DNA of 46,479 nt, from contig JAJTGP010000046.1 in assembly GCA_021299265.1 (NCBI GenBank), forward strand, positions 1-46,479, given 5' to 3'. The translations under genes and the position numbers were made by a program. Shown piece after piece: positions 4,340 through 46,479 of the stretch (position 1 is the first letter of the stretch; every line of letters starts with the position of its first letter). Below the pieces are notes generated by a model. That model ran no database searches, was not told the origin of the DNA, and worked only from the letters and a program-made list of their open reading frames with translations. The DNA comes from Hyphomonadaceae bacterium (GTDB taxonomy: Bacteria > Pseudomonadota > Alphaproteobacteria > Caulobacterales > Aquidulcibacteraceae).

Positions 4340-5870
4340 CGTCGTCTCTCTCCTCAGATTGATCTCCACGAATGAAGACAGATTTGGATTTCGCGATCTC
4401 GCCATCCTTGGGAGATGTCACTTCGATCATCACGGGCACCGAACGATGTTCAAGGCGCTCTGGGTCCGCGACAATAAACAAACGGACTTGGGCGACGCGA
4501 TCAGGTCCGGCAGTCAAAACAACGCTATTGTCGACGACAGGCATCTCATTGGCCTGTAATTGCCCGCCTTCCACGCCTTGCATGCGAATTCTGACCTCGC
4601 GTGTATGGTCAGCCTTGTTGAGAACTTTGACGGTATAAGCATTGCGCACTTGGCCGGTGGAGAGCGGCACAAACAAGGGTGCGCGGTCCCGCTGAACATT
4701 GACGTCCAAGCTCGTGCGCATAAACAGGCTGACGAGCATCAGGCCGCCGATGCCGACAAACAAAACCCCATAAAACAGCGTGCGTCCACGAATAAAACGA
4801 TAGCCGGACTTTTCCCCGGCCTGTCGACGTTCAATATTCTGGATGGTGTCGTAAGCGATCAGGCCCTTGGGCCGATCAATTTTCACCATGATCTCGTCGC
4901 ACGCGTCGATACACAGCGCGCAATTGATACACTCAATTTGTAAGCCATCGCGGATATCAATCCCGGCAGGGCAAGCGGCAACGCATTGGCGACAATCGAT
5001 ACAATCGCCGCGGCCTTCCCAACTATCATTCTTCTTATGGGGGCCACGTGGGTCGCCGCGGTCATAGCGATAGGTAACCGATAGGGCTTCCTGATCCAGC
5101 ATGGCGGCCTGAATGCGCGGCCAAGGGCACATATAGGTGCAGACCTGCTCCCGCAGGGTACCGGCAAAAACATAAGTCGTTGCCGACAGAAGGCCAGCAA
5201 ACACATAGGCCGACATCGGGGCCTTTAAAGTAAAAAAGCCAGCAAATAAGGTTGGCGCGTCGTGGAAATAGGCCACAAACCAGCCGCCCGTCGCAAGCGA
5301 GATCATCAGCCATACCATATGCTTGCCGACTTTCCGCCAGGCCTTGTTGAAGTCCCAAGGCTGTTTGTCGAGCCGAATGCGCTGGTTGCGATCGCCCTCA
5401 AACCAATGTTCGACTGCGATGAAGAGGTCCGTCCAGACCGTCTGCGGGCAGGCATAGCCACACCAGATGCGACCAAATAGGGCTGAGGCCAGAAACAGAC
5501 CAATCGCGCCCAAAATCAAGAGCCCGGTTACGTAGTAAAGTTCTTGAGGCCAAATCTCGATTGGGCCGAAGTAAAATCGCCGCCCCGTGAAATCAAACAG
5601 CAGGAATTGGTCTGGCGCGGCCCCGGGTCGGTCCCATCGCAAGAATGGCACCAAATAATAGATTCCCAGCAACAGGCCTACGATCAGCCATTTGGTTCGC
5701 CGCCAAAACCCGTGCACTGCCTTGGGATAGATCTGCTGGCGCTTCTCATACAGCTCCCGTTGCTGCGCGTTGTTCACCGCAACAGCATCAGAGCGCGCCA
5801 CACCGTGCGCGGCCTCACCACTCGCAAGAGCGGCAGGGCCTGCAACGTCTAGAGTGTCAATGATCTTCAT
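4332..5870 (-). CDS. ccoG: Cytochrome c oxidase accessory protein CcoG (FixG, polyferredoxin-like)
   Basis: Motifs CGYACPQTVWTDLF, CTYMCPWPRIQAAMLD, CIDCRQCVAACPAGIDIRDGLQIECINCALCIDACDEIM. Confidence 0.95.
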   Translation of the reverse strand: MKIIDTLDVAGPAALASGEAAHGVARSDAVAVNNAQQRELYEKRQQIYPKAVHGFWRRTKWLIVGLLLGIYYLVPFLRWDRPGAAPDQFLLFDFTGRRFYFGPIEIWPQELYYVTGLLILGAIGLFLASALFGRIWCGYACPQTVWTDLFIAVEHWFEGDRNQRIRLDKQPWDFNKAWRKVGKHMVWLMISLATGGWFVAYFHDAPTLFAGFFTLKAPMSAYVFAGLLSATTYVFAGTLREQVCTYMCPWPRIQAAMLDQEALSVTYRYDRGDPRGPHKKNDSWEGRGDCIDCRQCVAACPAGIDIRDGLQIECINCALCIDACDEIMVKIDRPKGLIAYDTIQNIERRQAGEKSGYRFIRGRTLFYGVLFVGIGGLMLVSLFMRTSLDVNVQRDRAPLFVPLSTGQVRNAYTVKVLNKADHTREVRIRMQGVEGGQLQANEMPVVDNSVVLTAGPDRVAQVRLFIVADPERLEHRSVPVMIEVTSPKDGEIAKSKSVFIRGDQSEERDDDD

Positions 5871-43620: not shown

Positions 43621-46125
43621 ATGAAGAAAACGATAACCTGAGCGGCGCAAGCATGCTGGCCCTTTCGGTCGCATCCGCGCTGATCGTAGCAGCTCCCCAA
43701 TTTGCCTTCGCTCAAGCGGCACCCGCAGCGGCTGATGAGCCCTCCGCAGAAGTGATCATTGTTACCGGTACACGCCGTGTGTCGCGTTCTGCTGCTGACA
43801 CCCCAGCACCGGTAGATATCATCGGCGGTGCCGAAATCGCGAAGCAAGGTGAATCCGACACGTCCAACCTGATCCGCAACTTGGTTCCGTCCTTCAACGT
43901 GAACACCCAAGCGATCAACGACGCCTCCTCTATCGTCCGTCCAGTTAACCTGCGCGGCTTGGCACCTGACCAAACCTTTGTACTGGTTAATGGTAAGCGC
44001 CGCCACCGCGCTGCCGTCATCAACTTCTTGGGCGGTGGTGTATCTGATGGTGCACAAGGTCCAGATATTTCTTCGATCCCCAGCATTGCTTTGAAGCAAG
44101 TTGAAGTTCTGCGCGATGGTGCAGCGGCTCAATACGGCTCTGACGCCATTGCCGGCGTGATGAACTTCATCCTGCGCACCGACTCGAGCGGCGCAGAAGT
44201 GGAAGCCAAGTACGGCCAATTCTACGAAGGCGATGGCACGACTTATCAAGTCGCCGGCAATTTCGGCCTCGGTCTTGGCGAGAATGGCTTTGCCAATGTC
44301 AGCCTTGAGTATCGTCAGTCTGGCGCGACCAGCCGTTCGGTCCAGCGTGGTGATGCTGCTGCTTTGGCAGCCGCTGGCAACACCGCCATTCCAAACCCAG
44401 CCCAAATCTGGGGTCAGCCAGAGTTGAAGAGCGACTATAAGGCCTTCGTCAATGCCGGGTTCGACCTTGGCAATGGCCGCAGCATCTATGCTTTCGGTAA
44501 TTATGGCACGCGCGAAACCGATGGTGGCTTCTATTATCGTAACCCAAACACCCGCGGTGGCGTGTTCTCGAACGATGGTGGCGTGACCCGTTTGGTTGCC
44601 GACACCACCCCAGGCACAGGCACCACCTGCCCTGTGATCACGATCAGTGCCGCAAATGAAGCAGCCCTGATCGCACAGGTCAAAGCTGACCCAACCTGTT
44701 TTGCCTTCATCGAGAAATTCCCCGGCGGCTTCACCCCACGCTTTGGCGATGAGTTGGTGGATTATGCCGGTGCTGTTGGGACCAAAGGCAATGTTGGCAA
44801 GTTGAACTATGACGTCAGCTTCAGCGCCGGTCGTAACGATGTGACCTTCCACATCAACAATACCATCAACGCATCCTTGGGCCCGAACTCGCCAACGGAG
44901 TTCACCCCCGGTCAGCAAATCCAAACCGAGAAGAACTTCAACATCGACTTGAGCTACGCCGTTCCAGTCAAGGGCTTTGCTTCGGACCTGAACATCGCTG
45001 GCGGCTTTGAATGGCGCAATGAAGAGTTTGAGTTGATCGCAGGTGATGCGGCTTCTTACACGGTTGGTCCTTTTGTGAACCAAGGCTTCTCGATCGGTTC
45101 GAACGGCTTCAACGGCTTCCGTCCTTCTGACGCTGGCGTTTGGGACCGCACCAATACGGCCTTCTATGTCGACTTGGAAGCCGACGTGACCGAGAAATTG
45201 GTTCTGGGTGCGGCTGTCCGTACTGAAGACTTCGACACCTTCGGCCAAACCACCAATTACAAGCTCTCGGGCCTGTTGCGGGCGACCGACGTTTTGACCT
45301 TGCGTTCGACCTATTCGACCGGTTTCCGTGCACCAACTCCGGGCCAAGCCAATGTGGTGAACACCACGACCAGCTTGATCGGCGGCGTTTTGGCTAACAC
45401 CGGCACGGTGTCGCCAACCAGCGTCTTGGGTCAATTGTTGGGCGGTAAGGAACTGAAGCCTGAAGAGTCCAAGAACTTCTCCTTGGGGGGTGCATTGGAC
45501 CTCGGTGGCCTGAAAGTTACCGTCGACTACTTCAACATCAAGATGGAAGATCGTATCCGTCTGCGTTCGGGCGTGCCTTTGACGCCAGCTCAAATCGCCG
45601 CTTTGACCCCAGCCCAATTGGCCGCCGTCAACGCGATCGGTGGTTTGACCTCTGACTTCACCAACTTCAAATATTTCGTCAATGGCGTGGACAGCACGAC
45701 CCAAGGCGTGGACTTTGTTGCGTCCTATCCGCTCGACTTGTTCGGCGGCAAGACCAGCTTGAACTTGGTGGCCAACTGGACCGAAACCGACATCACCCGT
45801 GGTGAGCGTTTGGCCGGTATCGAAGCTGATGGTTCGGCAGGTTTATTGCAGCTTGAGCAAGGCTTGCCCAAGTATCGTGGCAACATCTCGATCAACCATT
45901 ATCAAAACAAGTGGAGCGTTTCGGCTCGCCTGAACTATTATGGCGAATATTACGACCCACATGCCGATGACCCAACGCTGCCAATCTATGCAGACGCACA
46001 AGTTACCTTCGACACCGAAGTTGGTTATGACCTGACCGACAAGTTGAAGATCTCGGTGGGTGCCGACAATCTGTTCGACAGCTACCCAACCAGCAACCCC
46101 TCGTATGATGGACAAGTCCTTAGAC
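43621..46125 (+). pseudogene. TonB-dependent receptor, apparently frameshifted in the signal peptide and 3'-truncated by an IS110-family insertion
   Basis: Plug motifs LRGLAPDQTFVLVNGKRRH and VEVLRDGAAAQYGSDAIAGVMNF; body open to 46199 but receptor-like sequence ends near SYPTSNPSYDG. End coordinate approximate. Confidence 0.8.
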
Positions 46126-46309
46126 AAGGGTGTTTAAGGATAGTGACTGTCCAGCCTGAGTTATGCGCCTCAGTATCTAGAATACGTCGTCAAGCATAGG
46201 CGGGCAGTCATTTGTTTAATCTCCGAACAGTTGCCTGAGCTGTCGGAGGCCTAGCTAAGGGTTATCTTGGCGTGGCTTCTGGCAAGCTCGTATGCACGAG
46301 GAGGGAGCT
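46116..46309 (+). ncRNA. Candidate bridge RNA region of the IS110 element
   Basis: Consecutive stem-loops: 10-bp hairpin 46117-46126/46131-46140; long stem 46144-46158/46197-46210 enclosing an internal loop and terminal hairpin 46173-46176/46182-46185; hairpin 46221-46230/46240-46248. Position matches IS110-group bridge RNAs. Confidence 0.5.
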
Positions 46310-46479
46310 ATGACAGAGACACAAAAACCATCTTCTAGACCCTTTATTGGGATCGACGTTGCCAAATATCGCTTTGACGGGGCCAGTTCTTCTGGGCCTA
46401 TCATTGGACTTCACGTGCGGGAGCTACCCAGATTGGTTGACTGGGTAGAAAGCCAGAATCCGCAATTGGTGACGCTAGA
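46310..46479 (+). CDS. Partial IS110-family transposase (DEDD/RuvC-like N-terminus)
   Basis: MTETQKPSSRPFIGIDVAKYRFDGASSSGPIIGLHVRELPRLVDWVESQNPQLVTL; GIDVAK is the IS110 N-terminal motif. Confidence 0.88.
   Translation, partial: MTETQKPSSRPFIGIDVAKYRFDGASSSGPIIGLHVRELPRLVDWVESQNPQLVTL

What the first reader, a model, noticed from the sequence alone, without database searches (positions are those of the whole stretch)
46116..46309. Structured leader of an IS110-family element is a candidate bridge RNA
The roughly 190 nt before the transposase ATG is non-coding and folds into an ordered series. A 10-bp stem-loop (UCCUUAGACA/UGUUUAAGGA, AGGG loop) comes first. Next is a 14-bp stem with a one-nt bulge (46144-46152 + 46154-46158 with 46197-46201 + 46202-46210). 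It encloses an internal loop (left arm AGTTATGCGCCTCA, right arm GTCGTCAAGCA) capped by a GUAU/AUAC hairpin. A third hairpin CTCCGAACAG/CTGTCGGAG follows. A 5' stem-loop followed by guide-bearing internal loops is the published layout of IS110-group bridge RNAs that direct target and donor choice. The two internal-loop arms are the candidate target guides.
Basis: partly seen in the sequence, partly recalled or inferred. Interest (0 to 1): 0.78.

Follow-up and report, generated by a model that had tools for sequence, protein, structure and literature searches.

The report
Bridge RNA of an IS110 element
The stretch is the left end of a jumping gene that encodes a folded guide RNA of the recently described "bridge RNA" kind, and its guide letters match repeated palindromes found across its host genus; this is a well-supported new member of a known kind, not a new kind.

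Summary
A covariance model built from 16 relatives, without the window, finds one place in the 46.5-kb window: 46102-46313, 52.9 bits, E 2e-14. The relatives share 31 consensus pairs, 24 with compensatory changes.

The element starts earlier than stated: the core CT is 46100-46101 and the left end begins at 46102. Its tip carries TATGAT, half of a promoter completed only in the excised circle. Two complete relatives in Caulobacter MAGs show TTGACC-17-TATGAT at that junction and an IS110 DEDD transposase.

The first-loop arms are target guides. Across 16 relatives the left guide pairs with its own left target (mean 6.25 of 7; no label shuffle as good). The window's arms pair with the genus's REP-like palindromes (CGCGCCC/TGCACCC-CT-TGACG, up to 12 of 12 with GU). 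In a congener a related left end is joined to these palindromes at exactly that point.

Three caveats. The window copy sits in a TonB-receptor gene whose sequence fits the guides poorly. The right end and most of the transposase are missing from the assembly.

The parts
43653..46099 (+). TonB-dependent receptor gene interrupted near its 3' end (about the last 30 codons are displaced)
   Evidence: Pfam PF00593 and PF07715; intact orthologues in G001, G003, G004 run on as NPYATILGAKY...
46100..46101 (+). recombination core CT at the left junction
   Evidence: REP/element switch in G006 copies against empty REPs; core CT at both ends of L059, L062 and L089
46102..46479 (+). left part of an IS110-group insertion sequence, cut by the contig end
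   Evidence: tip shared with G006, L059, L062
46104..46109 (+). TATGAT, -10 half of the promoter that is formed at the circle junction
   Evidence: TTGACC-17-TATGAT at the reconstructed junctions of L059 and L062; no full promoter in the integrated window copy
46116..46309 (+). predicted bridge RNA (covariance-model match 46102-46313)
46117..46140 (+). 5' stem-loop
   Evidence: pair probabilities near 1; L059 and L062 have a similarly placed stem of other sequence
46142..46212 (+). target-binding loop with its closing stem
   Evidence: corresponding stem covaries in relatives
46164..46172 (+). left target guide UGCGCCU plus core position CA
   Evidence: register from relatives; pairs 7 of 7 (GU allowed) with REP left targets CGCGCCC and TGCACCC
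46173..46185 (+). apical hairpin between the target guides
   Evidence: MFE structure and the model alignment
46188..46194 (+). right target guide CGUCA plus core AG
   Evidence: pairs 5 of 5 with REP right target CT-TGACG
46221..46307 (+). donor-binding loop (inner stem 46237-46241/46285-46289)
   Evidence: consensus of relatives, model alignment, window pair probabilities
46227..46235 (+). left donor guide ACAGUUG plus core position CC
   Evidence: homologous guides equal the right-end tips ACAGCTG in L059 and L062 and ACAGTTG in L089
46293..46301 (+). right donor guide UGCACGAGG; ACGAG pairs with the left tip CT-CGT (46100-46104)
   Evidence: direct reading of the sequence; discontiguous right-donor pairing is the published pattern
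46310..46479 (+). start of the IS110 transposase ORF
   Evidence: 39% identity over 51 aa to the L059 transposase, E 7e-10, which passes PF01548 and PF02371

Best explanation
46102-46479 is the left end of an IS110-group insertion sequence whose 5' non-coding end encodes a bridge RNA. Inferred mechanism: the transposase excises the element as a circle. The circle joins right end, CT and left end and completes a promoter (TTGAC..-17-TATGAT) that transcribes from about 46116. The RNA folds into a 5' stem-loop, a target-binding loop and a donor-binding loop. Guides UGCGCCU-CA and CGUCA-AG choose the genomic target; ACAGUUG-CC and UGCACGAGG hold the element's own ends; the transposase then recombines the two at CT. 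The target guides are programmed for the REP-like palindromes of the host genus (CGCGCCC or TGCACCC-CT-TGACG). Shown here: layout, covariation, junction position, guide-target correspondence in relatives, and the guide-REP match of the window. Inferred: transcription, protein binding and activity.
For: Fold z -6.0. Model from 16 relatives without the window finds only 46102-46313, E 2e-14; 24 of 31 consensus pairs show compensatory changes. Complete relatives L059 and L062 with DEDD transposases. Left guide pairs with own left target 6.25 of 7 against 3.98 swapped, 0 of 20000 permutations; right guide 46 of 55 against 24, 0 of 20000. Window guides pair 12 of 12 (GU allowed) with REP ends, against two of about 5000 CT-centred window sites scoring 11 or more. 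A related left end lies in these REPs at the predicted point in G006. Junction promoter in relatives.
Against: No transcript, binding or activity data. The right end and most of the transposase are absent from the assembly, so the donor match at the right end is untested for this copy. The TonB site fits the guides poorly: 4 of 7 left and, if the lost right side was ACGCG, 3 of 5 right. The outer donor-loop stem is weak in the window alone. Guide registers were set by eye and several relatives share targets, so the permutation counts are not fully independent.
Confidence: 0.93

Rival explanations
1. The structure is an mRNA leader (5' UTR) that only regulates translation of the transposase, as described for ISPpu9, and does not guide the recombinase.
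For: It lies directly upstream of the start codon and its 3' end overlaps the GGAGGGAG ribosome-binding region; leader control of an IS110-family element is reported (PMC8450116, abstract).
Against: A leader would not need arms that match target and donor DNA in 16 relatives, nor a target loop whose arms change with the target. Both roles may coexist.
Confidence: 0.04
2. The RNA is real, but this copy is a dead relic, and the TonB insertion came from another process or an older guide.
For: The TonB site matches the guides poorly; the rest of the element and the gene's 3' end are not found in the assembly; G006 holds at least one remnant (L004), in which about 90 nt of left end run straight into a truncated gene.
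Against: The RNA is intact over its full length and fits the model; the available 56 codons are open; off-target insertions are known for IS621 (PMC11208160).
Confidence: 0.25
3. The join of the TonB gene to the element is an assembly chimera, and the element really lies in a REP.
For: The site fits the guides poorly and the receptor's 3' end is not found in the assembly.
Against: The receptor and REP flanks share only about 6 nt at the join (ACCC-CT), too little for a usual k-mer misjoin; the gene is collinear with G003 up to the junction (96.5% over 2446 nt).
Confidence: 0.1

Closest known systems
IS621 and the IS110-group bridge RNA (PMC11208160, PMC11208158)
   Same: Left-end location upstream of a DEDD recombinase, 5' stem-loop followed by target and donor loops, CT core, guide polarity, promoter formed at the circle junction, about 180-190 nt, REP-like targets.
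   Different: Other host lineage, other target and donor letters, a 32-nt longer donor-loop stem than its nearest relative L062; not matched by any Rfam 15 family; activity not shown.
seekRNA of IS1111 and IS110 elements (PMC11187229)
   Same: Non-coding region of an IS110-type element whose RNA selects the target; the same phenomenon under another name.
   Different: Only title and abstract were read here. IS1111 members carry the RNA in the right end (PMC11208160), the window element in the left end.
REP-targeting IS110 elements: ISPa11, ISPpu9, ISPpu10, ISRm19 (PMC1525189)
   Same: IS110 family inserting into repetitive extragenic palindromes.
   Different: Different hosts and palindromes; no sequence comparison with them was made here.

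Membership tests
IS110 family (DEDD transposase) | RuvC-like DEDD domain (PF01548) and PF02371 | tested here: inconclusive
   Only 56 codons are in the contig; no Pfam match. Linked through L059 (39% identity, E 7e-10), which has both domains.
IS110 group (against IS1111) | Long left non-coding end with the RNA, short right end | tested here: met
   208-nt left non-coding end with the RNA; in relatives L059 and L062 the right end lies within the last codons of the ORF. The window's own right end could not be seen.
IS110-group bridge RNA | Conserved secondary structure: 5' stem-loop and two loops | tested here: met
IS110-group bridge RNA | Target guides complementary to the target on both sides of the core | tested here: inconclusive
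   Met for relatives and for the genus's REPs; weak for the TonB site of this copy, whose pre-insertion right side is unknown.
IS110-group bridge RNA | Donor guides complementary to the element's own ends | tested here: inconclusive
   Right donor guide matches the left tip over ACGAG/CTCGT in the window; left donor guide testable only in relatives, where it matches.
IS110-group bridge RNA | Promoter formed at the circle junction | tested here: inconclusive
   TATGAT half present at 46104-46109; the whole promoter is seen in relatives.
IS110-group bridge RNA | Transcribed, binds its recombinase and directs recombination | not testable with these tools
   Needs RNA sequencing and biochemistry.

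The most novel reading that the evidence does not exclude
This IS110 lineage follows the REP palindromes of whichever host it lives in. The right half of the target (CT-TGAC) and its guide stay constant across Caulobacter and the window's genus, while the left guide changes with each host's palindrome (UCGCGUC, GCCCGUC, UGCGCCU): guide arms evolving in step with host repeats. The window copy in a TonB-receptor gene would then be an escape from that niche.
Probability: 0.35. Interest if true: 0.5.

Novelty: new member of a known kind. Interest (0 to 1): 0.33.

Why it matters
It adds a sequence-supported bridge RNA from a little-studied bacterial group. It also gives a small natural series (window, G006, two Caulobacter MAGs) in which guide letters can be read against host palindromes. 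That is useful for studying how RNA-guided insertion sequences change targets, and as a naturally programmed recombinase to test. The kind itself was described in 2024.

Tried and rejected
Rfam: no match. Pfam on the 56-aa fragment: none. Direct DNA and protein searches with the window fragment missed most relatives; the 17-nt left-end tip pattern found them. Of its 13 loci, three are G006's own (L055, L056, L060), two are the Caulobacter elements (L059, L062), and the other eight look like chance matches in other phyla. The 35-nt hits in G000:C287 and G003 are a chance match inside an unrelated gene. A search for the displaced TonB 3' end, and for right-end/REP junctions in G000 and G006, found none. 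An alternative right-guide register (GCAUAG, nearer to the TonB site) was rejected because L089, L129, L106 and L112 place the guide directly after the apical hairpin. A first table with wrong right-guide registers for L062, L059, L107 and L111 was corrected. In L062, GAAACAGCTGCC near locus position 5308 was first taken for the right end; CACAGCTG-CT-CGAC near 5184, shared with L059, replaced it.

Full report
OBSERVATION. The 194 nt 46116-46309 fold at -87.9 kcal/mol against -61.4 +/- 4.4 for shuffles (z -6.0, none of 200 as good). The third hairpin is not: probability ~0, and about 10 kcal/mol worse when enforced.

BOUNDARY. A related left end in the congener G006 (MAG JAIXQA01; L004, L006, L007) sits in a REP-like palindrome and switches from REP to element exactly after ..GATTGCACCCCT. 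Empty copies of the palindrome, present in all nine genomes of the genus, nearly all continue TGAC at that point. The window reads ..AACCC-CT-CGTATGATGGACAAG, the same tip. So the core is 46100-46101 and the element starts at 46102. Upstream is a TonB-receptor gene that is intact in G001, G003 and G004.

FAMILY. The tip CTCGTATGATGGACAAG, searched in the collection of 85,462 genomes, gave two complete relatives, both in Caulobacter MAGs (L059, L062). Their transposases pass PF01548 and PF02371. The window's 56 codons match L059 at 39% (E 7e-10). A wider search of the order found related transposases in 24 genomes; those read have the same left-end layout.

STRUCTURE. Sixteen relatives, window excluded, give 31 consensus pairs, 24 with compensatory changes. 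The model built from them finds the window at 46102-46313 with E 2e-14 and nothing else in 46 kb. In the genus it also finds other IS110 left ends, including a second one in the same genome (G000:C214). One caution: RNAalifold chose the structure on the same alignment in which the changes were counted.

GUIDES. Polarity follows Durrant et al. (PMC11208160; [quoted passage not shown] In 16 relatives the left guide pairs 6.25 of 7 with its own left target and 3.98 with others' (0 of 20000 permutations). In 11 relatives the right guide pairs 46 of 55 against 24 by permutation (0 of 20000). Several relatives share near-identical targets and registers were set by eye, so these are strong but not independent counts. 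In G003 the left target guide, left donor guide and right donor guide of another IS110 match its sites; its right target guide matches only the core and two further bases.

WINDOW TARGET. By the same register the window's guides are UGCGCCU-CA (46164-46172) and CGUCA-AG (46188-46194). They pair 12 of 12 (GU allowed) with the commonest REP end CGCGCCC-CT-TGACG and with TGCACCC-CT-TGACG, and 10-11 with the other REP variants found. Of about 5,000 CT-centred sites in the window itself, two reach 11 or more. The TonB site scores 4 of 7 on the left and, if the lost right side was ACGCG, 3 of 5 on the right. The pre-insertion allele of this strain is unknown: relatives read AACCCATACG or AACCCTTACG.

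DONOR AND PROMOTER. L059 and L062 right ends read TTGACC..TCACAGCTG-CT, equal to their left donor guide ACAGCUG. Joined to the left tip they form TTGACC-17-TATGAT. The window has only the TATGAT half (46104-46109) and no full promoter in the integrated form, so expression is expected from the circle, as in IS621. The window's left donor guide ACAGUUG predicts a right end ..ACAGTTG-CT, which is not in the assembly.

ODDITY. All 20 empty Caulobacter palindromes found read CCTTGAC, but the right junctions of L059 and L062 read CT-CGAC, with C as in the donor tip. Two cases only; unexplained.

VERDICT. A bridge RNA of an IS110-group element, by sequence, structure and guide-target evidence. Activity is untested and the copy is incomplete in this assembly. 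New member of a known kind.

Noticed in passing
L059 and L062, right junctions (L062 near locus position 5190): Right junctions read CT-CGAC although all 20 empty palindromes in those two genomes read CT-TGAC; the C equals the first base of the element's left tip, as if one base beyond the core had been converted.
   Followed up: partly
G003:C1 2466329, 2716292 and 3087366 (L089, L090, L091); also G004, G006, G007: A different IS110 in the same genus targets a second repeat, GGAATGCACC-CT-ACCGCGCG, with matching left target and donor guides.
   Followed up: partly
G000:C214:9-194, minus strand (L163): A second bridge-RNA-like left end of another IS110 lineage in the same genome, also cut by a contig end; its left flank reads CTCTCCCCTT.
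   Followed up: no
L004:1501-1603 (G006:C11): A REP carrying about 90 nt of this left end that runs straight into a truncated VOC-family-like gene: a remnant left by a deletion.
   Followed up: partly
L127, left end of its IS110: The left end holds a tandem duplication of about 100 nt that covers the tip, 5' stem-loop and left-guide region, so it has two candidate left guides.
   Followed up: no
G000:C274 (L148): A REP variant in the window's own genome reads TAAACCC-CT-TGACT, which equals the left guide UAAACCC of the G006 element.
   Followed up: no
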